Assembly: GCA_023488455.1 (NCBI GenBank)
Contig: JAMDDV010000023.1
Location: 1-10,334 of the forward strand
Source: Actinomycetota bacterium
GTDB taxonomy: Bacteria > Actinomycetota > Humimicrobiia > Hakubellales > JAMDDV01
Direction of reading: 5' to 3'
DNA: 10,334 nucleotides
The position numbers and the translations under genes were made by a program. Under the pieces are notes generated by a model. The model was not told the DNA's origin. It did no database searches and was given only the letters and a program-made list of their open reading frames with translations. Shown piece by piece: positions 1 to 10,334 of this stretch (positions within the stretch are counted from its first letter, which is position 1; each line of letters begins with the position of its first letter).

Positions 1-335
1 CTTTTGATACCTCAAATACGGTGGATGCCCTAAAGAATGCCATCTACTCCGTAAGAAAGGGTGGGAATGTCTATGCGATAGGTGAGCACCCATCTCTTCC
101 TGCTGATCTAGGTGAAATTTTCATAAGTGACATACTGGTGCACAGGCATCTTGGAATTAGAGGATTAATGTACTTCCCCATTGGTGAATATAAAAATATA
201 GTAGATGTGTTGAGAAAAGATAAGGAAAGCTTTGAAAAGCTAATTACTCATGTGTTCCCACTCGATAAGATCAATGAAGCTTTCAATGTTTTCTTTGAAG
301 ATAATGAGTCAATAAGGGTATTGATAAAACCATAG
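1..335 (+). CDS. Medium-chain zinc-type alcohol/polyol dehydrogenase, C-terminal part only
   Basis: This is the 3' end of a gene that begins before the window; the reading frame is open from base 3 and the first visible residues are FDTSNTVDALKNA. The visible 110 or so residues match the end of the nucleotide-binding domain and the C-terminal return to the catalytic domain of medium-chain dehydrogenases: a helix, then VRKGGNVYAIG (a beta strand ending in glycine), then LITHVFPLDKINEAFNVF, the usual ITHxFPLxxxxEAF signature, and a short final strand. The GTG at 21 is an internal valine, not a start. It lies 43 bases before another dehydrogenase of the same superfamily on the same strand, so the two are probably co-transcribed. 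The final segments are only distantly similar to the downstream enzyme. The zinc-binding half is outside the window, so neither zinc dependence nor substrate can be read. The superfamily call is firm. Confidence 0.85.
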   Translation, partial: FDTSNTVDALKNAIYSVRKGGNVYAIGEHPSLPADLGEIFISDILVHRHLGIRGLMYFPIGEYKNIVDVLRKDKESFEKLITHVFPLDKINEAFNVFFEDNESIRVLIKP

Positions 336-378: not shown

Positions 379-1395
379 ATGAAAGGTTTAAGATTTTTAG
401 GAAAAAGAACAGTTGAATTAAGAGAACTTCCTAATCCAGTCGCGAAAGATGATAAAGTCGTAGTTAAAATAAAGGCATCTGCAATTTGTGGTTCTGATTT
501 GCCTAATTATAGAGCTAATTCAGATATCTTAGGGTGCGTACCTGGACATGAGCTAGCTGGTGTAGTCTTTGAAGTTGATAAAGCTTGTAAAGTAAAAATT
601 GGCGATAGAGTAGCTTTAAACACACAAATTGGATGTGGAATATGTAGATATTGTAGAGTTGGTCAGGTACTGTTTTGTAAATCACTGAAAATTATGGGTT
701 ATACGGCTGGTTTTAATGGCGGACATGCAGAATATGTAAGTATCCCCGAAAAAGACTGTTTATCGTTACCAGATGATATAGGATTTGATATAGGTGCAGT
801 GATCCCTGATGGTGTGGGTGTTGCCCATCATCTATTAAATAGAATGGGATTAAGGGCTAAAGAATCAGTGGCGGTATTTGGTTGCGGTCCTATAGGTATT
901 GGAATGATTACGCTTTTAAAATTTTGGGGTGCATATGTAGTAGGTGTTGATGTAAATGAATATAGGTGTGAACTGGCTTCAAAGTTAGGGGCAGATATTG
1001 TTATTAATGCTAATGAAGAGGAACCTGTTGGTACTATTATGAAAATAACAGAAGGAGATGGTGCTGCAAAAACAATAGATTGCGTTGGGGAAACAGATAT
1101 TACTTTAAATCAAGCTTTATCCAGTGTAAGAGCTGGAGGTAAAGTAGGCTTTTTGGGAGTAAAAAGTAGAGTAATAATTAATGACTTTTATAACCTGGTC
1201 TCAACTAGAGAGCTGGAGATTTTCGGGAGCTGTGGATATAATTTGTCTGAATTCGATAATATTATTTCCTTAATAAGGAGTGGGTTACCAGTGGAAAAAA
1301 TGATAACCCATAGATTCCCATTAAAGAAAGCAGATGAAGCCTATAGATTGTTTGATCAAGGGAAAACCGGCAAAGTTGTTTTAATACAGGAGTAG
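379..1395 (+). CDS. Zinc-dependent NAD(P) alcohol/polyol dehydrogenase (medium-chain family)
   Basis: This 338-residue protein has normal length for the sorbitol/threonine dehydrogenase-type medium-chain family, which oxidises a secondary hydroxyl to a ketone with NAD(P)+ in the cytoplasm. The catalytic-zinc ligands are C37 (AICGSD) and H57-E58 (PGHELAG). The structural-zinc cysteines are C86, C89, C92 and C100. The Rossmann motif is GCGPIG at 168-173, and D191 at the end of the second strand suggests NAD rather than NADP. The ending ITHRFPLKKADEAYRLF is typical. The start at 379 is supported by collinearity from residue 1 with the paralogue at 7405-8418, although the ribosome site is weak (AAGAG at 366-370). 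By hand count the two share just under 60% identity over the first 210 residues. Sequence and context suggest a sugar or polyol substrate; the exact one cannot be told. The family call is very secure. Confidence 0.93.
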   Translation: MKGLRFLGKRTVELRELPNPVAKDDKVVVKIKASAICGSDLPNYRANSDILGCVPGHELAGVVFEVDKACKVKIGDRVALNTQIGCGICRYCRVGQVLFCKSLKIMGYTAGFNGGHAEYVSIPEKDCLSLPDDIGFDIGAVIPDGVGVAHHLLNRMGLRAKESVAVFGCGPIGIGMITLLKFWGAYVVGVDVNEYRCELASKLGADIVINANEEEPVGTIMKITEGDGAAKTIDCVGETDITLNQALSSVRAGGKVGFLGVKSRVIINDFYNLVSTRELEIFGSCGYNLSEFDNIISLIRSGLPVEKMITHRFPLKKADEAYRLFDQGKTGKVVLIQE

Positions 1396-1552: not shown

Positions 1553-2530
1553 ATGATTGAAAATAAATTCAAACACTTAGAAGCCAGTAAAAAAATAGAA
1601 ATGCTTAAAAAGATGTACGAGATTAGGCATTTTGAAGATGAAGTAGACCAATTACTTATAAGAGGTGAAATTCATGGTTCATGCCATCTTTGTGTTGGTC
1701 AGGAAGCATCAGCAGTAGGATCTATATATGCTTTGGATGAAAAAGATTATATAACTTCTAATCATAGGGGTCACGGTCATTGTATTGCAAAGGGAGCAGA
1801 CATTGGAAAGATGATGGCAGAGATCTTGGGAAGAAAAACGGGTTATTGCGGTGGTAGAGGCGGATCAATGCATATGGCAGACATCGAAAAGGGTAATTTA
1901 GGAACAAATGGTATTGTAGGCGGCAGTATTGGATTAGCAACTGGAGCTGCTCTTACCTGTAAACTAAAAGAAAATGGGAAAATTGTTGTTTGCTTTTTCG
2001 GTGATGGGGCAATAAATAGAGGTATTTTCCATAGTTCTATAAACATGGCATCTATTTGGAATCTTCCCATTATATATCTTTGTGAAAACAATCTCTACGG
2101 ATTATCGACGCCGATAAAGGAAGCAATAAATATAAGTAAAATATCAGACAGGAAATGTGCTTATGGTATTGAAGGTATGACCATAGACGGGAATGATCTT
2201 GTTAAGGTTTTTAATACAGTGAAACATTTTGCTGAATATTGCAGAGAAGGAGAAGGGCCAGTATTGATTGAAAGCCAGACCTATAGATGGAAGGGTCATT
2301 CAAGAAGCGATGCACAGGTATATAGAACAAAGGAAGAAGTAAAAAACTGGATGGAGAAAGATCCCATTAGAAAATATAAAGAAATGTTAATCAAAGAAGG
2401 TTCATTTAGTGAAAAAGAGGACAAGGTTTTGGAAGGGGAAGTAACAAATGAAGTAAATCAAGCTGTTAAGTTTGCAAGAGAGAGTCCTTATCCAGATCCC
2501 TCAACACTGGAAGATGATGTTTATGCATGA
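1553..2530 (+). CDS. TPP-dependent dehydrogenase E1 component, alpha subunit (acetoin/pyruvate dehydrogenase type)
   Basis: This 325-residue protein matches the AcoA/PdhA alpha family, in which an alpha2-beta2 E1 uses thiamine diphosphate to cleave or decarboxylate a 2-oxo acid or acetoin and passes the acyl group to E2 lipoate. The TPP/Mg motif runs from GDG at 150-152 to NN at 179-180. Other family marks are HRGHGH at 71-76, GGRGGSMH at 100-107, and a C-terminal phosphorylation-loop-like block with GHSRSD followed by YRTKEEV. The length is right for an intact subunit. No Shine-Dalgarno stands before the ATG at 1553; the internal ATG at 1601 is no better, and starting there would shorten the helix that precedes the conserved IRHFED block. 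The stop overlaps the beta-subunit start by 8 bases, as expected for a stoichiometric pair. No E2 or E3 gene follows, so whether it acts in a complex or alone is open. Confidence 0.9.
   Translation: MIENKFKHLEASKKIEMLKKMYEIRHFEDEVDQLLIRGEIHGSCHLCVGQEASAVGSIYALDEKDYITSNHRGHGHCIAKGADIGKMMAEILGRKTGYCGGRGGSMHMADIEKGNLGTNGIVGGSIGLATGAALTCKLKENGKIVVCFFGDGAINRGIFHSSINMASIWNLPIIYLCENNLYGLSTPIKEAINISKISDRKCAYGIEGMTIDGNDLVKVFNTVKHFAEYCREGEGPVLIESQTYRWKGHSRSDAQVYRTKEEVKNWMEKDPIRKYKEMLIKEGSFSEKEDKVLEGEVTNEVNQAVKFARESPYPDPSTLEDDVYA
2509..2513 (+). promoter_or_regulatory. Ribosome binding site that fixes the E1 beta start
   Basis: GGAAG inside the end of the alpha gene lies 9 bases before the ATG at 2523. 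ATGs at 2514 and 2517 are too close to it, and the TTG at 2472 has no comparable site. This favours 2523 as the translation start. Confidence 0.5.
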
Positions 2531-3533
2531 CAATGTAAAGATAAGGGAAATAACATATATAGAAGCAATAAGAGAAGCCATGCAGCAAATGATGAGAATT
2601 GACAGTGATGTATACCTCATGGGCGAAGATGTGGCGGAATATGGCGGGATATTCAGTGTCTCCGTGGGTATGGTTCAGGAGTTTGGAAAAGAAAGAATTA
2701 GAAATACTCCCATTTCAGAGGAAGCAATAGTAGGAGCTGCAGCTGGGAGCGCGCTCACTGGAATGAGACCAATAGCTGAAATAATGTTCATTGATTTCAT
2801 CACTATCGCTATGGATGAAATTATAAATCAAGCTGCAAAAATCAGATATATGTTTGGGAAGCAGGCAAAAGTGCCCTTAGTTATAAGAACAGCAGCAGGA
2901 GGAGGTTTGGGTCACGCAGCACAACATTCACAAAGCCTGGAAGCTCTGCTTACCCATATTCCAGGTATTAAAGTTGTAATGCCTTCATGTCCATACGATG
3001 CAAAGGGATTATTGATATCCTCAATTAGAGATAATAATCCGGTAATTTTTATTGAACATAAGCTGCTATATAGAAATAAAAAATATGCGCAAAATGTGCC
3101 CGAGGAAATATATGAAATACCCCTTGGAGTTGGAGACGTGAAGAGAACGGGGAAAGATCTCAGCATAGTTGCAACCTCTTTTATGGTACAAAAATCTCTT
3201 GAAGTGGCAGAAGAACTAAAGAATGAAGAGGGGATAGATTGTGAGGTAATTGATTTGAGAACACTTCGCCCACTTGATATTAATATTGTTTTAGGTTCAA
3301 TAAAAAAGACCGGTAAGCTTATTTGTGTTCAGGAAGCGTGCGGTTTTGGAGGATTTATGGGTGAAGTAATAACTCAGGTTGTAGAAAAAGGATTTAATCT
3401 TCTTAAAGCACCGATAGCAAGAGTAACCGGGAAAGATTGCCCTGTTCCATGCAGCATAGTATTGGAACAGGAGATGATTCCAAGTATCGATAGGATAAAA
3501 AAAGGTATATTGGAGATTTTGCAAAAAACCTGA
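2523..3533 (+). CDS. TPP-dependent dehydrogenase E1 component, beta subunit
   Basis: From the preferred ATG the protein has 336 residues, the usual size for AcoB/PdhB, which forms the TPP site together with alpha. Visible family blocks are MGEDVAEYGG at 33-42, TPISE with E66 (the glutamate that activates the TPP aminopyrimidine), EIMFIDF near 86-92, AAKIRYM at 104-110, and the glycine-rich AAGGGLGHAAQHSQ ending with H135 as the probable active-site histidine. The C-terminal transketolase domain has EVIDLRTLRPLD and a late RVTGKDCPVP block. An open frame extends upstream to a TTG at 2472, but those residues lie under the alpha C-terminus and do not resemble the family. The gene overlaps alpha by 8 bases, consistent with translational coupling. 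Nothing catalytic seems missing. The oxo-acid, acetoin or diketone substrate cannot be decided from sequence. Confidence 0.92.
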   Translation: MHDNVKIREITYIEAIREAMQQMMRIDSDVYLMGEDVAEYGGIFSVSVGMVQEFGKERIRNTPISEEAIVGAAAGSALTGMRPIAEIMFIDFITIAMDEIINQAAKIRYMFGKQAKVPLVIRTAAGGGLGHAAQHSQSLEALLTHIPGIKVVMPSCPYDAKGLLISSIRDNNPVIFIEHKLLYRNKKYAQNVPEEIYEIPLGVGDVKRTGKDLSIVATSFMVQKSLEVAEELKNEEGIDCEVIDLRTLRPLDINIVLGSIKKTGKLICVQEACGFGGFMGEVITQVVEKGFNLLKAPIARVTGKDCPVPCSIVLEQEMIPSIDRIKKGILEILQKT

Positions 3534-3592
3534 TTTGGGGATAATTTTTACAATCAGAAAAATAGAAATAAATGTTATTAAAAAGAATAACT

Positions 3593-3601
3593 AAGGGGAG
3601 G
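3593..3601 (+). promoter_or_regulatory. Strong ribosome binding site before the class II aldolase gene
   Basis: AAGGGGAGG ends 5 bases before the ATG at 3607 and only 2 bases before the TTG at 3604, so the ATG is the likely start. It is one of the strongest such sites in the window and implies efficient independent initiation after the 73-base gap that follows E1 beta. Confidence 0.7.
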
Positions 3602-3606
3602 TATTG

Positions 3607-4452
3607 ATGTTAGTTGATATAGTAAAAATTTTAAATGATGCTAGGAATAAAAAATATGGAGTAGCAGCGCCAACTATATGGGATGAAAGGTCTATAAGGG
3701 CAAGCTTAGCAGCTGCCACTGAACTCAAATCTCCTATTATTCTAGATTTTGTTAAGGATTATGGATTAAATGAAATTTTTGAAAACAGAGTAGCATTTGA
3801 ACTGGCAGATAGCGTGGAGGTTCCTGTTGCTGTACAGCAAGACCATGGTCCTACCTTCGAAGCCAATATTTGGGCCATACATGCCGGTTTTCAATCCATT
3901 ACTGTAGAGCGTTCCGAACTGCCTTATGCGCAGCAAATAGTAGAAATAAAAGAATTGGTCCGGATTGCACATGCAGCCAATGTAGCAGTAGAGTCAGAGG
4001 TGGGGCATGTTACTGAATTAGGGGGATCCGAAGAAACAGTAATGACGGATCCGGAGCAAGCAAAAAAATTTGTTGAGGAAACTGGAGTAGATTTGATAGC
4101 AGTAGCAATAGGCAATGTACATGGTGTTTATCAAGAAAAACCAAAGTTCAATTTTGAAAGAATAATGAAAATTAGGGATATGGCAAATGTTCCAATGACC
4201 ATACATGGTGGTTCTGGAATTGATCTTAGGGATATGACTAAACTTGCAGAATCTGGCATTACTAAATTTAATATGCAAACTTATCTAAGTAAGACAGCAA
4301 TAAATACAGCATTAAAATACATTGAAGATAATCGGGATAATCCAGATCCCTGGAAAAGAATGCTTAAATATGTAGCAGAAGCTGCTGATGAGGGATGGAA
4401 AGAGGAGCTGAAACGATACATTCTGGCATTAAAGTCGGATGGAAAAGCGTAA
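3607..4452 (+). CDS. Class II (zinc) fructose/tagatose-bisphosphate aldolase-like protein
   Basis: The 281-residue protein is a TIM-barrel class II aldolase of the FbaA/GatY/KbaY type, enzymes that split ketose phosphates into dihydroxyacetone phosphate and an aldehyde. The central block VPVAVQQDHG supplies the catalytic D79 and a zinc ligand H80. H172 (GNVHGVY) and H200 (TIHGGSG) complete the zinc site, and E131 lies in the VESEVGHV strand. GGSG at 201-204 and ITKFNMQT around N222 form the usual phosphate-binding end. Two segments differ from the textbook family: the N-terminal AFNxxN-type motif is APTIWDE here (21-27), and the loop after strand 4 reads TVERSE rather than the usual MIDGS. 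Retained metal ligands with altered substrate loops suggest an active enzyme with a different aldehyde or ketose partner. It lies between the E1 pair and the LsrF-like gene, 47 bases before the latter. Confidence 0.85.
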   Translation: MLVDIVKILNDARNKKYGVAAPTIWDERSIRASLAAATELKSPIILDFVKDYGLNEIFENRVAFELADSVEVPVAVQQDHGPTFEANIWAIHAGFQSITVERSELPYAQQIVEIKELVRIAHAANVAVESEVGHVTELGGSEETVMTDPEQAKKFVEETGVDLIAVAIGNVHGVYQEKPKFNFERIMKIRDMANVPMTIHGGSGIDLRDMTKLAESGITKFNMQTYLSKTAINTALKYIEDNRDNPDPWKRMLKYVAEAADEGWKEELKRYILALKSDGKA

Positions 4453-4499
4453 TAAATTAATAATAAATAATTGAAAATTCAATATCGGAGGATTGACAA

Positions 4500-5294
4500 A
4501 TGGATTGGGGTATGTCAAATAGGCTTAATAAGCTGATACCTGATGGTCATTGTTTCTTTATACCAATGGACCATGGATATTTTCAGGGGCCTACAACAAA
4601 TCTTGAAAAACCAGGAGATACCATAAAACCACTTTTACAATATTGTGATGGGATATTTTGTACAAGAGGTGTTTTGCGTTCTGCAATACCACCAGTTAAT
4701 AGTAAACCAATAATACTCAGAGTTAGTGGAGGGTCTAGTATGGTAGGGAAGGACCTGGCAAATGAAGAAATAACAACTTCTATTGAAGAGATAATTCGTT
4801 TGGATGTGGATGCAGTGGGAACTTCAGTATATATCGGAAGTGATTATGAAAAACAAACAGTCATTAATCTATCAAAACTTGTAAACGAGTGTGAAAATTA
4901 TGGTATTCCTGTCATGGCGGTTACAGCAGTAGGAAAAGAAATAGAAAAACGTGAATCACGCTATCTTGCATTGTGCTGCCGCATTTGCGCAGAAATGGGC
5001 GCGAAAATAGTGAAAACATATTGGTGTGAAAACTTTGAAAAAGTAGTGAACGGTTGTCCAGTTCCAGTAGTTATGGCGGGGGGGCCTAAATGTGAAACGG
5101 AGCGTGAAGTATTTGAATTTGTATATGATGGGATGCAGAGGGGTGCAATTGGAATCAATCTTGGAAGAAATGTATGGCAGAGTCCCCATCCGGTAGCAGT
5201 AGCGGCTGCACTTCAAGCAATCGTTCATAAGAATGCTAATGTTAGTGAAGCATGCGATATATTCAATGAATCTAAAGATACCCGATTGAAGTAG
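4500..5294 (+). CDS. LsrF-like class I aldolase/thiolase (3-hydroxy-5-phosphonooxypentane-2,4-dione thiolase family)
   Basis: The 264-residue protein closely resembles E. coli LsrF, which transfers the acetyl part of the phosphorylated autoinducer-2 dione to CoA and releases dihydroxyacetone phosphate. Blocks I recall as shared with LsrF include DHGYFQGPTT at 24-33, CTRG...LRS...PP at 54-65, VYIGSDYE at 110-117, KTY at 172-174, GCPVP at 185-189 and GRN..QS.HPVA at 222-233. K172 matches the Schiff-base lysine K203 of LsrF with a constant offset of 31, so the difference is a missing N-terminal extension. The ATG is supported by GGAGG at 4487-4491, 8 bases upstream. No lsrK, lsrG, lsrR or transporter neighbours are present, so an autoinducer role is doubtful. 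The same family includes archaeal ADTH synthases, so an aldol or transaldol reaction is an alternative. Family membership is very likely; the substrate is unknown. Confidence 0.9.
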   Translation: MDWGMSNRLNKLIPDGHCFFIPMDHGYFQGPTTNLEKPGDTIKPLLQYCDGIFCTRGVLRSAIPPVNSKPIILRVSGGSSMVGKDLANEEITTSIEEIIRLDVDAVGTSVYIGSDYEKQTVINLSKLVNECENYGIPVMAVTAVGKEIEKRESRYLALCCRICAEMGAKIVKTYWCENFEKVVNGCPVPVVMAGGPKCETEREVFEFVYDGMQRGAIGINLGRNVWQSPHPVAVAAALQAIVHKNANVSEACDIFNESKDTRLK

Positions 5295-5309
5295 TCATTA
5301 ATATTCTAT

Positions 5310-6479
5310 ATGAAAAGGTTAAAAGTAGGTCTAATTGGAGCAGGTTTTATGGGCAGAGCCCATAGCATCGGATACTCAATTATGCCTCTATATTTTTGGC
5401 CACCCCCGGCAATGCCCATAAAGGAAGTTATTGTAGATGTTACTGAAGATCTTGCTAAAAAAGCAGCAGAACGATTAGGTTTTAACAGATGGACGACAAA
5501 ATGGGAAGATGTCATTAATGACAATAATATAGATATTGTTGATATAACTGCCCCCAATTATTTACATAAGCCTATTGCTATTGCGGCTGCAAAGGCAGGC
5601 AAGCATATATTTTGCGAGAAGCCGCTGGCGATGAATGGAAAAGAAGCAAAAGAGATATATGAAGTTGTTGAAAAAAGTAAAGTAAAGCATATGGTGGGAT
5701 TTAATTACAGAAAAATCCCGGCGGTTGAATATGCAAAACAGCTGATAGAAGAAGGTAAGTTGGGTGAGATAAGTCACTTTCGTGGTTTTTATATTAATGA
5801 TTGGGCTACAGATCCGGATATGCCAATATCATGGAGGTTTCAACCATCAAAAACGGGGTCAGGAGTTGTTGGAGATCAGGGGTCACATATATTTGAAATG
5901 AGCCGGTATTTATTGGGTGAATTTAAAAGAGTTATTGCGCAAACTGATATTCTGCTAAAAGAAAGACCGTTTCCAGCTTCTTCATTCGATACTTTTGGTA
6001 AATCAGCCAAGTCACTGGACACTGAGAAAATGAAAATTAATTTAGAGGATAAAGGGACAATGCTGGTTGAATTTGAAAGTGGTTTAAAGGGCACAATAGA
6101 GGTTAGCAGAATGGGTTGCGGACATAGAAATTATCTTTCATTTGAGATTAGCGGGACAAAGGGGTCTATATATTTCAATTGGGAGAGAAATAACGAGATT
6201 AAATTTTTTTCTACAAATGAGCCTTATGAAATGCAGGGTTATAAAGTTATACAAATTGGGCCAGATCATCCAAGAGGCAAAGCTTTTTGGCCTATACCCG
6301 GAATAAATATTGGATTTTCTGAAACATTTGCAATAGAGTTTTTTGATTTTATATCTGGGATTATAAAAGATAAAGAAATTAATCCAAACTTTGGTGATGG
6401 GGTCAGGATATGTGAAATTGTTGATGCTGCTCTTAGATCAGTTGTGAGTGGGAAATGGGAGGAGTGTCGCAGCGTTTGA
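5310..6479 (+). CDS. Gfo/Idh/MocA-family NAD(P)-dependent oxidoreductase
   Basis: The 389-residue protein has the two-domain layout of this family, whose members oxidise or reduce sugars, inositols and their derivatives in the cytoplasm. The N-terminal Rossmann fold shows GLIGAGFMGRAH at 7-18, and D43 at the end of the second strand suggests NAD. The family EKP motif, with the catalytic lysine, is E103-K104-P105. The second domain has GFNYR at 130-134 and GDQGSH at 188-193, with H193 the probable catalytic histidine. The ending ALRSVVSGKWEE is also typical. The ATG lies 15 bases after the previous stop with no clear ribosome site, so coupling to the LsrF-like gene is likely. The start fits the family because the Rossmann motif begins within the first ten residues. 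A proline-rich insertion (WPPPAMP, 30-36) precedes strand 2. Position suggests it oxidises the same sugar or polyol as its neighbours. Confidence 0.92.
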   Translation: MKRLKVGLIGAGFMGRAHSIGYSIMPLYFWPPPAMPIKEVIVDVTEDLAKKAAERLGFNRWTTKWEDVINDNNIDIVDITAPNYLHKPIAIAAAKAGKHIFCEKPLAMNGKEAKEIYEVVEKSKVKHMVGFNYRKIPAVEYAKQLIEEGKLGEISHFRGFYINDWATDPDMPISWRFQPSKTGSGVVGDQGSHIFEMSRYLLGEFKRVIAQTDILLKERPFPASSFDTFGKSAKSLDTEKMKINLEDKGTMLVEFESGLKGTIEVSRMGCGHRNYLSFEISGTKGSIYFNWERNNEIKFFSTNEPYEMQGYKVIQIGPDHPRGKAFWPIPGINIGFSETFAIEFFDFISGIIKDKEINPNFGDGVRICEIVDAALRSVVSGKWEECRSV

Positions 6480-6512
6480 ATTAATAAAACAATAGCAAAA
6501 TGGGGGATTAAT

Positions 6513-7391
6513 ATGAAGGTAGTCGTTACTGGCGGAAGCGGCTTAATAGGAACATATGTAGTAGATGAGTTGGTTAATTACAAATATGAAGTCTTAAATT
6601 TTGACATAGTCGAGCCAAAGGAAAATAAATCGGAATTTGTTAAAGGAGACATGCTAAATATTGAAGACTGCAGAAAGTATTTGAAAGGAGCTGATGTCAT
6701 CGTTCATTTAGCTGCTATACCAAATCCGTTCAATGATCCACCAGAAAGAATTATTTATTATAACGTAATGGGGACTGCAAATATGTTCATTGCCGCAGCA
6801 GAACTTGGAATAAATAAAGTAATCCATTGCAGTACTGATTCAACTTATGGATTCTGGTTCAGGAAGCAGGAATTCTTACCCTACTATCTTCCTTTGGACG
6901 AAGAACATCCCATTAACACACAGGATTCTTATGGATTCAGCAAGAAAATTGATGAGGAGATAGCAGCTAACTTTGCCAGAAGTCATAGTATCTATTCAAT
7001 GAGTATTAGAATTCCGTTTATTGCAATTCCTAATTTCATAATGCCGCACATGATATTCCATAAAATTTCTTCTTATAAAGAGATGAATGAGAATCCGTTG
7101 CACTTGAAAAGCGGGTTCTGGTCGTATTGTCATGTTAGAGATGTAGCTCAAGCATTCAGGCTTGCAGTTGATGCAATAACGACAAGAAGTGTTAGGAAGC
7201 ATGAGATATTTTGTGTGTGTGCTGATGATAATATTACAAAGTCAGATAGCATCGATTTGGTAAAAAAGTACTGGTCTGAAATGATCCTATTTAAGAAGGA
7301 AATCAAGGGCAGACAATCGCTTTATGATAATAGCAAGGCAAAAATAATGTTAGGATATAAACCTAATTATTCATGGCGAGATTTCATATAG
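6513..7391 (+). CDS. NAD-dependent epimerase/dehydratase-type extended SDR
   Basis: The 292-residue protein is an extended short-chain dehydrogenase, a group that includes sugar-nucleotide epimerases and uronate dehydrogenases. TGGSGLIG at 6-13 binds NAD, D31 closes the second strand, and HLAA at 65-68 is the next conserved block. The catalytic triad is visible as S107 or T108 in HCSTDSTYG plus Y140 and K144 (YGFSK). The C-terminus LGYKPNYSWRDFI matches the usual end of the family. A ribosome site (GGGGGA at 6502-6507) precedes the ATG at good spacing. It lies 33 bases after the Gfo/Idh/MocA gene and is the last gene of the plus-strand run, converging on the minus-strand dehydrogenase. A role in sugar oxidation is more plausible here than cell-wall epimerisation, because no glycosyltransferase or nucleotidyltransferase is nearby. 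The exact reaction is not readable. Confidence 0.88.
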   Translation: MKVVVTGGSGLIGTYVVDELVNYKYEVLNFDIVEPKENKSEFVKGDMLNIEDCRKYLKGADVIVHLAAIPNPFNDPPERIIYYNVMGTANMFIAAAELGINKVIHCSTDSTYGFWFRKQEFLPYYLPLDEEHPINTQDSYGFSKKIDEEIAANFARSHSIYSMSIRIPFIAIPNFIMPHMIFHKISSYKEMNENPLHLKSGFWSYCHVRDVAQAFRLAVDAITTRSVRKHEIFCVCADDNITKSDSIDLVKKYWSEMILFKKEIKGRQSLYDNSKAKIMLGYKPNYSWRDFI

Positions 7392-7404: not shown

Positions 7405-8418
7405 TTAATGAATTATAACCACCTTCCCCGTATTGCCTGTATCAAATAATTGATAAGCCTCTGCAACTTCAGTGAAGTTGAACCTATGGGTGATCAGCTT
7501 ACCGATACCAAACCCTCTTTTTACCAACTTGATCAGCTTTCCGTATTCGCTGATATTGTAACCACATGAACCGTAAATGATGGTTTCCTTGTGAATTATC
7601 ATCTCCCTTAGGTTATCAAGGCAAACCCTTTCTTTTTCGCCTATGAATGCGACTTTCCCTCCATTCTTAATCACGCGCAGGGACTGGTTGGTGGTTACAT
7701 CGGTACCAGCTGCGCAGTCAATTGCTTTATCAACCCCTTCGCCATCTGTGATGTCAAGTATCGATTTGATCACATCATCTTTATCTGGATTAATAGCAAC
7801 ATTGGCACCGAACTGACTGGCGAGGTTACGGCGATATTCATTCATCTCCACTGCTATGGTGAAAGCACCCAGGTACTTGAGCATGATCACCATGCCAAGA
7901 CCAATTGGTCCAGTACCAAAGACAACTACCGAATCCATGCTCGTGATCCCCATCTTGCCCGTGGAATGATATGGAACTCCTAAGCAGTCCGGTATTACCG
8001 ACCCCACATCATATGGAATTTCATCCGGCAGGTTGAGGCAATCCTTCTCAGACGCCTGGACGTACTCAGCATGACCTCCGTTAAAGCCGGGTGTGACGCC
8101 CATTGTCCGCATATCATTGCAGAACAGTACTTGGCCGTTTCGGCAGTTATCGCAACTGCCGCAGCCGACCTGCGTGCTCACTATGACCCTATCTCCTACT
8201 TTTAAGCTCACCGTTCTATCCACCTCAGCAACTTCTCCAGCTATCTCATGACCTGGAATAGCTCCAAGTACATCAGTTGATGCCCTGTAAAATGGTAGAT
8301 CAGTTCCACATAGAGCTGAAGCCATTACTTTTATTACCACAAGATCATCTTTGGCCTTGGGCTTTGGAAATTCCTTATATACCACTTTTTTATTGCCCGT
8401 GAACCTTGTGCCTAACAT
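7405..8418 (-). CDS. Zinc-dependent NAD(P) alcohol/polyol dehydrogenase, paralogue of the one at 379-1395
   Basis: The 337-residue protein keeps every signature of the zinc medium-chain dehydrogenases: C37, H57 and E58 for catalytic zinc, C86/C89/C92/C100 for structural zinc, GTGPIG at 168-173 for the dinucleotide, and the ITHRFN...EAYQLF ending. The residue closing strand 2 is E191 instead of the D191 of its paralogue, still compatible with NAD. The AGGAG at 8427-8431 lies 8 bases before the start and fixes it well. Its DNA is visibly richer in G+C than its neighbours: several 60-base rows have about 31 G+C, against 20-23 in comparable rows of the paralogue. It follows two URO-D-like genes on the same strand after a 59-base gap. 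Its stop is only 13 bases from the stop of the convergent SDR gene, with no clear terminator between them. It probably acts on a related polyol or ketose. Confidence 0.93.
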   Translation of the reverse strand: MLGTRFTGNKKVVYKEFPKPKAKDDLVVIKVMASALCGTDLPFYRASTDVLGAIPGHEIAGEVAEVDRTVSLKVGDRVIVSTQVGCGSCDNCRNGQVLFCNDMRTMGVTPGFNGGHAEYVQASEKDCLNLPDEIPYDVGSVIPDCLGVPYHSTGKMGITSMDSVVVFGTGPIGLGMVIMLKYLGAFTIAVEMNEYRRNLASQFGANVAINPDKDDVIKSILDITDGEGVDKAIDCAAGTDVTTNQSLRVIKNGGKVAFIGEKERVCLDNLREMIIHKETIIYGSCGYNISEYGKLIKLVKRGFGIGKLITHRFNFTEVAEAYQLFDTGNTGKVVIIH

Positions 8419-8477: not shown

Positions 8478-9497
8478 TTAAAGCTCAACCTTTCCATATT
8501 TTTTTATGGTCCTTAACATAGCAAGATAGTTTTGTGGCTTCACACTGGCATGGATACAATTACTTGACGAAACTATAAGACCACCTCCCGAGGCGCATTC
8601 ATCAATAATTTTTATTACTTCTTTTTCAACATCCTCCTCAGTTCCAAAAACAAGGGTGGTGGCGCAATTTACATTGCCCTTAAGTGCAATTTTATTACCA
8701 TACTTCTCCTTAACATTCTTAATATCCATGCCTCCAAGTGGATCAATTGGGTCAAGACAATCGATACCTGAATCAACGATCAAGTCCATGACTTCATTTA
8801 TATTGCCATCTGTATGTTTAATGACATAAAGCCCTGCCTCCTTGAACCCGCTGATTAGCTTCTTGAATGCTGGGTAGAACATCGAAGTGTAAAGTCTTGG
8901 TGATAGAAGCAAACTAAGATTGTCTGCGATATCATCTCCCATAACTACACCATCTGCCCCTATCTCCTTGGCTTTTTTGCCTAAGCTGAGGTTGAACTCG
9001 TAAGAAAGCTCTACAAGTGATCTAATTAGTGAGGGAGAGTCGTAGAGGCCAACAAGAAAATTTTCATATCCCATCAAATCACGCGGCAGCGAAAATACGT
9101 CATTTAAAGCGAATATTAAAAACTTCTTATTCTTAAATCTACTAACAGCATTTTTAAGATCATCAAATCTGGACTCATCCAACGGATCAGGTACATCTAA
9201 TTTTCCGAGATCAGAAATAGTTTTAATCGGACCATCAATAGCAATCTTATGTGATTCCTGGGTTTGTGCTCTCTTTATACCCCATTCATCAACGAAAATA
9301 TTTTCGTCTATCTGTAAATAGTTTCTGCCCCAAGATATCGTTAATCCGTCTAAACCAAATCTTTCGACAAAGTCGAACAGGTCCGTGCTACCCATTAATG
9401 ATTTTATAATACAGGGATGAATGTCCCATTCAAATGTTGGCACTATGTCTGGTAGTTTAAGATTAAGAGCAGCAACTACTCTTTGAAAAGAATTCAT
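8478..9497 (-). CDS. URO-D/MtaA-superfamily protein (uroporphyrinogen decarboxylase-like, possible methyltransferase)
   Basis: The 339-residue protein has the TIM-barrel pattern of the URO-D superfamily, which includes HemE and the cobalamin or coenzyme M methyltransferases MtaA, MtbA and CmuA. It lacks the N-terminal RQAGR motif of true HemE, so it is unlikely to make haem. Recognisable blocks are DEWG at 70-73, GDD at 187-189, SPRLY at 199-203, H228-T-D230 followed by GN, LKGNV at 272-276, and the C-terminal SSSNCIHA...P.NYLAM with C314. MtaA-type enzymes bind zinc through HxC plus a later Cys; here the pair reads HxD while C314 is kept. The ATG overlaps the preceding gene's stop as ATGA, so the two are co-translated. 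Corrinoid- or methyl-transfer chemistry is possible but unproven. No corrinoid protein gene is in view. Confidence 0.82.
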   Translation of the reverse strand: MNSFQRVVAALNLKLPDIVPTFEWDIHPCIIKSLMGSTDLFDFVERFGLDGLTISWGRNYLQIDENIFVDEWGIKRAQTQESHKIAIDGPIKTISDLGKLDVPDPLDESRFDDLKNAVSRFKNKKFLIFALNDVFSLPRDLMGYENFLVGLYDSPSLIRSLVELSYEFNLSLGKKAKEIGADGVVMGDDIADNLSLLLSPRLYTSMFYPAFKKLISGFKEAGLYVIKHTDGNINEVMDLIVDSGIDCLDPIDPLGGMDIKNVKEKYGNKIALKGNVNCATTLVFGTEEDVEKEVIKIIDECASGGGLIVSSSNCIHASVKPQNYLAMLRTIKKYGKVEL

Positions 9498-10334
9498 GCT
9501 TTGATTGGATATTTTCCATATTTCCTTGTTGCCTGGTAAAAAGCGGCAATATTTTCAGACGGCACATCCAGTTGAATCCTTGAGGCAGTGGCAAGAATGT
9601 ATCCACCACCTGGCGCAAGATCTTTTATTGTTCTGTGCACTTCTGACTTTACATCAACGGCCGAACCAAACGGCAAAATAGTCTGAACACCAATTGCTCC
9701 CCATAAAACAAGTTTTTTTGCATATCTTTTTTTTATCCATACAGGATCCATACTTTCAGGCTGAACACCGTGTATAATATTTACTCCAGCTTCAACAAGA
9801 TCATCCAAAATTTTATATATACAACCATCACTATGATAGGCAATTTTAATGTTGGGATTTACTTTTCTTAACTCATTCACTACATAAGCTACCCTTGGCT
9901 TTATTAATTTTCTATAAATTTCAGGTGAAATCATCAGATCATGCTCCAAACCTACGTCATCACCAAACCAGATGGCATCTACCCCAAGGCCGATTAATCT
10001 TTTAGCAAAAAACAGGTTATAATTTACTACCATATCCATTATTCTACTTGCCAAATCCGGGTTTAACATCAAATCCATCAAACCTTGTTCCCAACCCCTT
10101 AGATATCTAAGGGGTTCAAAAGCTAACACTGTGATATCCCCAATTATGTAATGAGATTTTCCATATTTTTTCATAAGTTCTATTGATGGGTTAAAATCCA
10201 CCAAATTTGGATCCGGCGGCGCATATGAATTAATTGCATCATCATCAGCTAAGGGGTGTTCTATGATCTCATTGTAATAGCCTATACCAAAAAGCGTTTT
10301 GTACGGAATTTTTCGAAGCCTTATTCCCCATTCA
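9494..10334 (-). CDS. URO-D/MtaA-superfamily protein, N-terminus cut by the window edge
   Basis: The frame stays open to the end of the window and gives 279 visible residues, starting at EWGIRLRKIPYKTL. The TTG at 10202-10204 is an internal leucine, not a start. By alignment with the neighbouring paralogue (DEWG at its residues 70-73) about 70 N-terminal residues are missing. Family blocks are WFGDDVG, SPEIYRKL, YHSDGC (visible H167 and D169), VLWGAIG, and a C-terminal region with PSENIAAFYQATRKYG. Unlike the downstream protein it has ATASR where the zinc cysteine of MtaA-type enzymes would be, so that ligand is absent. Its TGA overlaps the next gene's ATG by 4 bases. Divergence between the two copies, rather than near identity, argues for two specialised proteins. 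The substrate is unknown. Confidence 0.82.
   Translation of the reverse strand, partial: EWGIRLRKIPYKTLFGIGYYNEIIEHPLADDDAINSYAPPDPNLVDFNPSIELMKKYGKSHYIIGDITVLAFEPLRYLRGWEQGLMDLMLNPDLASRIMDMVVNYNLFFAKRLIGLGVDAIWFGDDVGLEHDLMISPEIYRKLIKPRVAYVVNELRKVNPNIKIAYHSDGCIYKILDDLVEAGVNIIHGVQPESMDPVWIKKRYAKKLVLWGAIGVQTILPFGSAVDVKSEVHRTIKDLAPGGGYILATASRIQLDVPSENIAAFYQATRKYGKYPIKA

What the first reader, a model, noticed from the sequence alone, without database searches (positions are those of the whole stretch)
1553..7391. Possible undescribed sugar/polyol cleavage pathway built from E1 alpha/beta, a class II aldolase, an LsrF-like thiolase and two oxidoreductases
Six consecutive same-strand genes combine three different kinds of C-C bond chemistry (TPP, zinc aldolase, Schiff-base thiolase) with a Gfo/Idh/MocA enzyme and an SDR, preceded by two zinc dehydrogenases. 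I do not recognise this combination from a named pathway such as acetoin, inositol, autoinducer-2 or apiose use. A working model is oxidation of a polyol or sugar to a diketo intermediate, then cleavage to dihydroxyacetone phosphate and an acyl-CoA. The lack of a kinase or transporter in view leaves the substrate and the direction open.
Basis: partly seen in the sequence, partly recalled or inferred. Interest (0 to 1): 0.72.

Follow-up and report, generated by a model that had tools for sequence, protein, structure and literature searches.

The report
Sugar-splitting operon with borrowed E1
Six genes from an uncultured bacterium look like a sugar- or polyol-breakdown operon that pairs two carbon-carbon-splitting aldolases with a diverged copy of pyruvate dehydrogenase's first enzyme; the substrate is unknown.

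Summary
The six genes exist as described. Relatives of E1alpha, class II aldolase and Gfo/Idh also share one other contig of 61,466 bases, so part of the set is conserved once; order there is unseen.

Two labels change. The 'LsrF-like thiolase' sits in a 78-row subfamily apart from three true LsrF (100/100); E. coli Asp251, proposed as catalytic, is Asn in 78 of 78. The E1 pair is a diverged offshoot of PDH-operon E1s of one uncultured Actinomycetota class, changed beside the catalytic beta-His, with no E2 in the window.

In that class E1 pairs recur among sugar genes: of 83 E1alpha, 12 have a class II, AraD-type or LsrF-like aldolase within five genes, in three E1alpha clades, and 17 more only a transaldolase-like gene; control 0 of 174 positions for either (small, labels biased). 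The window's own set was not found again: no close aldolase relative in 40 genomes; E1-linked class II aldolases there are 27-35% identical.

Best reading: a sugar/polyol catabolic operon with a recruited E1. Kinase, transporter, substrate and E1 reaction are inferred or unknown.

The parts
3..335 (+). zinc alcohol dehydrogenase, C-terminal part, cut by the window edge
   Evidence: open 5' end; weak matches to ADH models; no Pfam match at 1e-3
379..1395 (+). zinc dehydrogenase of threonine/sorbitol dehydrogenase type, 338 aa
   Evidence: (Tdh model 210 bits, cut-off 380)
1553..2530 (+). E1 alpha subunit (PF00676), 325 aa
   Evidence: trees
2523..3533 (+). E1 beta subunit, 336 aa; Glu59beta and His128beta (G. 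stearothermophilus numbers) kept; A125, L129, H131, K295 differ from 14 of 14 PDH-operon-group rows
3607..4452 (+). class II aldolase, YdjI/KbaY type; AAGGGGAGG ahead of the ATG at 3607
4500..5294 (+). LsrF-like class I aldolase of the Asn subfamily; Schiff-base Lys172 kept
5310..6479 (+). Gfo/Idh/MocA dehydrogenase near levoglucosan dehydrogenase
   Evidence: 6a3f, 401 bits
6513..7391 (+). extended SDR of epimerase/dehydratase type, 292 aa, no close named family
7405..8418 (-). third zinc dehydrogenase, convergent, 52% identical to the one at 379-1395
8478..9497 (-). URO-D/MtaA-CmuA-like protein
9494..10333 (-). second URO-D family protein, cut by the window edge, 29% identical to the first over 204 positions

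Best explanation
A catabolic operon for a sugar, polyol or anhydrosugar in an uncultured bacterium, probably of the Actinomycetota class that holds genome G275 (inferred). Zinc dehydrogenases, the Gfo/Idh enzyme and the SDR oxidise or re-set hydroxyls (inferred from family). A kinase outside the window phosphorylates the keto-sugar (inferred; FGGY or DhaKL kinases stand beside E1 or LsrF-like genes in relatives). The class II aldolase, and the LsrF-like Schiff-base aldolase on the same or a second keto-phosphate, split it to dihydroxyacetone phosphate and an aldehyde or keto fragment (inferred). The E1alpha/beta pair, derived from a PDH-type E1 and changed beside its catalytic histidine (tree and alignment), takes a sugar-derived 2-oxo acid or acyloin and passes the acyl group to an E2/E3 core encoded elsewhere (inferred).
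For: Tight same-strand packing with no terminator-like site inside. Relatives of E1alpha (P0345, 72%), aldolase (P0004, 76%) and Gfo (P0122, 64%) each list one contig of 61,466 bases; window and P0345 E1alpha pair at 100/96 and 99/94. At columns conserved in PDH-operon-group rows the window E1alpha departs at 19-22 and P0345 at 14-15, against 0-9 for the 15 group rows left out in turn. In E1beta G125A, T129L and A131H (14 of 14 otherwise) lie just ahead of the catalytic His; 131 aligns to T124beta, which lines H128beta. Class context: of 83 E1alpha, class II/AraD/LsrF-like aldolase within five genes 12, transaldolase-like only 17, FGGY kinase 17, E2 within three genes 26; control 0 of 174 for aldolase or FGGY labels. 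The sister of the window's LsrF-like row (L208, 97/87) lies beside DhaK, DhaL, E1alpha and FGGY kinases.
Against: No kinase, transporter or regulator in the window. No aldolase relative at 1e-55 in 40 class genomes (the tool warns that an empty answer without a known positive shows nothing), and class II aldolases beside E1 there are only 27-35% identical to the window's: the pairing of families recurs, not this operon. Most of the 29 aldolase-type labels are transaldolase-like genes, many in one orthologous operon. Only 1 of 80 LsrF-like loci has E1 nearby. URO-D is hardly enriched (9 of 83 against 7 of 174). Labels came partly from E1 neighbourhoods. E2 partner, substrate and organism are inferred.
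Confidence: 0.4

Rival explanations
1. The E1alpha/beta is simply this organism's pyruvate dehydrogenase E1, moved next to a sugar operon; E2 and E3 sit elsewhere.
For: The window E1alpha nests among E1alpha of PDH-type operons with E2, lipoate ligase and E3, at up to 71% identity. Glu59beta and His128beta are kept.
Against: Window and P0345 share their own branch and depart at 19-22 and 14-15 conserved E1alpha columns against 0-9 in group rows; changes in the loop before the catalytic His, and D295K, in E1beta. P0345's contig also bears the aldolase and Gfo. The host genome is not held, so a second PDH E1 cannot be shown.
Confidence: 0.28
2. The E1alpha/beta is a stand-alone carboligase or lyase that moves a two-carbon acyl anion to or from a keto-sugar, as proposed for AviB1/AviB2 and Pau11/Pau12, so the operon makes or breaks a branched or 1-deoxy sugar.
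For: Proposed precedent of E1alpha/beta pairs acting on keto-sugars (PMC4425429 passages). Keto-sugar-forming dehydrogenases and an epimerase-type SDR in the same gene run. Class-wide 113 E1_dh matches, 17 of another kind, against 41 E2 matches.
Against: No glycosyltransferase or nucleotidyltransferase among the window's scanned ORFs; some related loci carry ABC transporters and FGGY kinases, which fit catabolism. The precedent is a proposal, and kinship of the window pair to AviB/Pau was not tested.
Confidence: 0.18
3. Unrelated genes that happen to adjoin: an E1 pair followed by a separate aldolase-dehydrogenase operon.
For: The six families were not found together again; about 73 bases separate E1beta and the aldolase; LsrF-like relatives mostly lie elsewhere.
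Against: Three of the six families on one other contig at comparable identity, 64-76%; no terminator-like site in the gap; E1-aldolase vicinity recurs in three further E1alpha clades.
Confidence: 0.14

Closest known systems
Pyruvate/acetoin dehydrogenase E1alpha/beta
   Same: Pfam domains, Glu59beta and His128beta; up to 71% identity of E1alpha to class PDH-operon rows
   Different: No E2/E3 in the window; loop before the catalytic His and C-terminal Asp295 changed
LsrF (3-hydroxy-5-phosphonooxypentane-2,4-dione thiolase)
   Same: About 46% identity to Klebsiella aerogenes LsrF; Schiff-base Lys and phosphate-site residues kept
   Different: Asn at Asp251; separate 78-row subfamily; no lsr genes in the window
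YdjI-type class II aldolase (PDB 6ofu)
   Same: Best solved relative, 150 bits; DHG, HG and HGxSG motifs aligned
   Different: 36% identity to E. coli copies; what else the ydj cluster holds is recalled
Levoglucosan dehydrogenase LgdA (PDB 6a3f; the entry says putative dehydrogenase, the name is recalled)
   Same: 401 bits over nearly the full length; NF052479 494 bits
   Different: Below the 650-bit cut-off; no PF01261 LgdB gene in the window
AviB1/AviB2 and Pau11/Pau12
   Same: E1alpha/beta pairs proposed to act on keto-sugars (PMC4425429 passages)
   Different: Those clusters make antibiotics; sequence kinship to the window pair was not tested

Membership tests
LsrF / AI-2 lsr system | Score over the curated LsrF model | tested here: met
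   351 bits, cut-off 297
LsrF / AI-2 lsr system | Asp251 next to the Schiff-base lysine (PMC2728841 passages) | tested here: not met
   Asn in the window and in 78 of 78 rows of its subfamily; Asp in 3 of 3 true LsrF
LsrF / AI-2 lsr system | lsrK/lsrACDB/lsrG neighbours | tested here: not met
   none among the window's ORFs; beyond the window not seen
Pyruvate or acetoin dehydrogenase complex | E1 catalytic residues | tested here: met
   Glu59beta and His128beta aligned by hand
Pyruvate or acetoin dehydrogenase complex | E2 and E3 genes in the same operon | tested here: not met
   none in the window; the host genome is not held
Pyruvate or acetoin dehydrogenase complex | Binding to an E2 core and activity on pyruvate | not testable with these tools
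   D295K and D292N noted; a role of this face in E2 binding is recalled, and the passages opened did not give it
Levoglucosan pathway | LgdB1 (PF01261) beside LgdA; 253 of 265 in PMC10066097 (passages) | tested here: not met
   no PF01261 match among the 11 ORFs scanned
Levoglucosan pathway | Score over the levoglucosan dehydrogenase model | tested here: not met
   494 bits, cut-off 650
Class II ketose-bisphosphate aldolase | PF01116 and metal-site motifs (motifs recalled) | tested here: met
   225 bits; DHG, HG, HGxSG aligned to YdjI
Alternative DXP synthase | DXR present while DXS is absent in the class | tested here: not met
   DXS over cut-off 0 of 40 (partial matches in 8), DXR 2 of 40

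The most novel reading that the evidence does not exclude
In an uncultured Actinomycetota class, PDH-type E1alpha/beta pairs have been recruited several times into sugar operons beside different aldolases (class II, AraD-type, LsrF-like, transaldolase-like) as stand-alone thiamine enzymes that cleave or build keto-sugars or acyloins without a dedicated E2. The window is one such recruitment, derived separately from the PDH E1 group and joined to an LsrF-like aldolase subfamily that is not LsrF.
Probability: 0.18. Interest if true: 0.75.

Novelty: new variant of a known kind. Interest (0 to 1): 0.48.

Why it matters
If right, 2-oxo-acid dehydrogenase E1 pairs would be exchangeable sugar-cleavage parts and not only pieces of E1-E2-E3 machines, and labels such as 'pyruvate dehydrogenase E1' and 'LsrF thiolase' would mislead for many genes of uncultured bacteria. 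The pairing gives concrete enzyme sets to express and assay.

Tried and rejected
DXS replacement: no class genome has DXS over cut-off (0 of 40; 8 of 40 have partial matches at 1e-60), which suggested that a lone E1 might make DXP. DXR is in only 2 of 40, so the MEP pathway is mostly absent from these drafts and the idea was dropped.

Levoglucosan pathway and AI-2 use: set aside on the tests in Membership tests.

Viral contigs: no relative of the class II aldolase. Plasmid records: true LsrF at 43-46% and more distant class I aldolases (60 of 269 records listed); Gfo up to 48% (30 of 1121 listed); class II aldolase up to 36% (30 of 401 listed). I opened five plasmid regions; none holds the window's set.

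Scans for the window's class II aldolase: 3 of 12 genomes at 1e-20, at most 38%; 0 of 31 at 1e-40; 21 of 396 at 1e-40, at most 41%; 0 of 40 at 1e-55. For the SDR: 2 of 40 at 1e-20, at most 34%. For Gfo: 26 of 40 at 1e-40, at most 50%; five Gfo loci opened lack the set.

Paper searches whose listings showed nothing on this combination: (the last is 955 papers, 10 listed, off topic). Open-licence PMC only.

No structure was predicted: sequence already places all six in families with solved members.

Corrections on checking: the first count '29 of 83 with an aldolase' was split (12 aldolases proper, 17 transaldolase-like only); identity of E1-linked class II aldolases is 27-35%, since the 36% row is not beside E1. 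For these I lowered the best reading from 0.42 to 0.40 and the novel reading from 0.20 to 0.18, and raised two rivals by 0.01 each.
Full report
The observation. The window holds six consecutive + strand genes from 1553 to 7391: E1alpha, E1beta, class II aldolase, LsrF-like aldolase, Gfo/Idh/MocA dehydrogenase and an epimerase-type SDR. E1alpha and E1beta overlap by 8 bases. The aldolase most likely starts at the ATG at 3607, behind AAGGGGAGG. No + strand terminator-like site lies within the run; promoter-like sites are no more frequent than in shuffles (31 found, mean 38.7), so they say nothing. Two zinc dehydrogenases precede the six genes. A third, 52% identical to the second, and two URO-D family genes face them from the other strand. 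No genome is held for the window.

Each part. E1beta passes the curated PDH-beta model (358 bits, cut-off 321); E1alpha falls just short of its model (376, cut-off 394); the LsrF-like protein passes the LsrF model (351, cut-off 297); the Gfo protein falls short of levoglucosan dehydrogenase (494, cut-off 650); the SDR has no close family (82 bits at best). Nearest solved structures: LsrF, YdjI, PDH E1 alpha and beta, 6a3f for Gfo, and sundry epimerase-type SDRs at 66 bits or less.

Conservation of the set. Protein searches give no gene context, but the length of the longest contig acts as a fingerprint. P0004 (class II aldolase, 76%), P0122 (Gfo, 64%) and P0345 (E1alpha, 72%) each list a single contig of 61,466 bases; I infer that it is one contig. 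Order and distance are unseen, and the LsrF-like, E1beta and SDR genes were not searched this way. Comparing the three lists of 120 by eye I saw no other shared length apart from the window's own.

The LsrF-like protein. One search returned 80 loci (best 80 of 85, a capped list) at 63-79% identity in many phyla. My simple ORF caller found the gene in 75; in 45 of these a zinc dehydrogenase is the next (44) or next-but-one gene on the same strand. By tblastn with the window's E1 proteins, 1 of 80 has E1 in the fetched stretch (L056); many stretches are cut short by contig ends. A tree of 81 rows (window, 75 loci, two class genomes, three plasmid LsrF) splits 78 from the three true LsrF at 100/100 on long branches; the tool warns that the Parabacteroides branch is long, but the residues agree. 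E. coli Asp251, 2.9 A from Lys203 and discussed as a possible catalytic residue in PMC2728841 (passages), is Asn in 78 of 78 and Asp in 3 of 3; the archaeal relatives shown have Ala. Equivalents of Lys203, Asp57, Gly226, Gly227, Gly253 and Arg254 are kept in the window. So aldol chemistry on a phosphorylated substrate is plausible, and LsrF thiolase is not a safe label. The window's sister row is L208 (97/87, a long branch), from G369; its most similar row is L001 (80%). L208 holds DhaL, DhaK, the LsrF-like gene, E1alpha, FGGY kinases, RpiB and cupins; in G377 an E1alpha gene stands divergent from the LsrF-like gene (L209). These are the only two class genomes of 40 with an LsrF-like gene above 35% identity.

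The E1 pair. Its closest relatives with known context are E1alpha genes of an uncultured Actinomycetota class reached through G275 (up to 71% for full-length matches). The link to Humimicrobiia is inferred: P0248, 'Actinobacteria', lists a 13,500-base contig, the length of G275 contig 24; P0253 and P0264 are 'Candidatus Hydr...'; an aldolase relative at 56% is 'Candidatus Humimicrobiaceae'; the taxonomy places Hydromicrobium and Humimicrobiaceae in Humimicrobiia. Against it, one listed E1alpha is 'Firmicutes' and a Gfo relative at 51% 'Atribacterota'. In that class the usual arrangement is SorC-type regulator, E1alpha, E1beta, E2, a small Cys protein, lipoate ligase, E3 (Pfam on representatives). 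In an 85-row tree the window pairs with P0345 (100/96) inside that group (97/88, then 98/87); an earlier 48-row tree agrees (99/94). At columns conserved in the 15 group rows (some on cut contigs) the window departs at 19-22 and P0345 at 14-15, against 0-9 for the rows left out in turn; seven departures are shared by window and P0345. In E1beta 19 columns differ from the 14 group rows; A125, L129 and H131 lie just ahead of the catalytic His135, and H131 aligns to T124beta, one of four residues nesting H128beta in PMC2663715 (passages; my hand alignment). D292N and D295K change the C-terminal domain; that this face binds E2 is recalled and not confirmed by the passages opened, and residue 295 is Lys in 12 of the 77 other rows too, so that change alone proves little.

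The class theme. PF00676 matches 38 of 40 class genomes, 113 matches by my addition, up to 13 in G369; 17 have frames of 750 aa or more at under 160 bits and are another kind. E2 (PF00198) matches 31 of 40, 41 matches. These are draft genomes. From the stretches fetched (not every match was fetched, and L208 and L209 were first fetched for their LsrF-like genes) I kept 83 distinct E1alpha of 200 aa or more. E1beta lies within three genes of 79, E2 of 26; within five genes there is a class II, AraD-type or LsrF-like aldolase for 12, only a transaldolase-like gene for 17, an FGGY kinase for 17, URO-D for 9, transketolase/RpiB genes for 18. Most transaldolase-like cases belong to one operon with split transketolase and RpiB; outside such contexts the figures are 11 aldolases and 5 transaldolase-like of 65. 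Of the 57 without E2 nearby, 10 have an aldolase, 14 more a transaldolase-like gene only, 12 FGGY and 7 URO-D. The 12 aldolase cases fall in three E1alpha clades: six with class II aldolases, four with AraD-type, two with LsrF-like, and the window lies in a fourth. The combined 'sugar' label (aldolase, FGGY or URO-D) needs at least 10 changes on starred branches, which may be losses as well as gains, and labels depend on contig ends. As control, 20 arbitrary stretches (192 kb, some masked; 174 gene positions, four of them masked runs) gave aldolase or transaldolase-like labels within five genes at 0, FGGY at 0 and URO-D at 7. The reference set was drawn partly from E1 neighbourhoods, which favours them, the control is small, and many E1 rows are orthologous operons, so the contrast is indicative only. 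Four representative class II, one AraD-type and one FGGY label were confirmed by Pfam. The E1-linked class II aldolases are 27-35% identical to the window's: a recurring pairing of families, not the same operon.

How it may work. Shown: gene order, families, subfamily and tree placements, residue changes. Inferred: oxidation by the dehydrogenases, an outside kinase, aldol cleavage to DHAP, and an E1 step on a 2-oxo acid or acyloin with E2/E3 from elsewhere. A bolder reading is E1 acting alone on keto-sugars, as proposed for AviB1/AviB2 and Pau11/Pau12 (PMC4425429 passages). The main rival is that this is just the organism's PDH E1. The idea that lone E1s replace DXS was tested and fell.

Novelty. 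The listings of four searches of open-licence papers showed no description of E1alpha/beta with class II and LsrF-like aldolases; subscription papers are not covered. I file it as a new variant of a known kind: known enzyme families in a combination I did not find described, conserved in part once, with an unproven reaction.

Noticed in passing
L001-L080, e.g. L001:3155-9432: The LsrF-like Asn subfamily occurs in Omnitrophota, Thermodesulfobacteriota, Chloroflexota and others, with a zinc dehydrogenase next or next but one in 45 of 75 loci. In some Omnitrophota (e.g. L001, L012, L020) it lies with an MtnA-like isomerase, an AraD-type aldolase and an aldehyde dehydrogenase, which resembles the DHAP shunt for 5'-deoxynucleosides (abstracts in the listing).
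   Followed up: partly
L247, L254, L284, L286, L287, L288, L292, L293, L296-L300: A recurring class operon of split transketolase, RpiB, SorC-type regulator, E1alpha, E1beta and usually a transaldolase-like protein, without a labelled E2: an E1 pair inside a pentose-phosphate operon (some loci cut).
   Followed up: partly
G369 (2.2 Mb draft): Thirteen E1_dh matches, some of them fragments, against two E2 matches in one small genome.
   Followed up: partly
window 8478-10333; L212, L274, L279, L282: URO-D family genes stand beside FGGY kinases, AraD-type aldolases or E1 pairs in several loci; their role is unexplained and the enrichment near E1 is weak (9 of 83 against 7 of 174).
   Followed up: partly
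class of G275, 40 genomes: DXS over cut-off in 0 of 40 and DXR in 2 of 40, so isoprenoids may come from mevalonate in most; not tested.
   Followed up: partly
L112:6192-8774: Parabacteroides plasmid with DhaK, DhaL and a gene annotated lsrF side by side, echoing the DhaL-DhaK-LsrF-like neighbourhood of L208.
   Followed up: no
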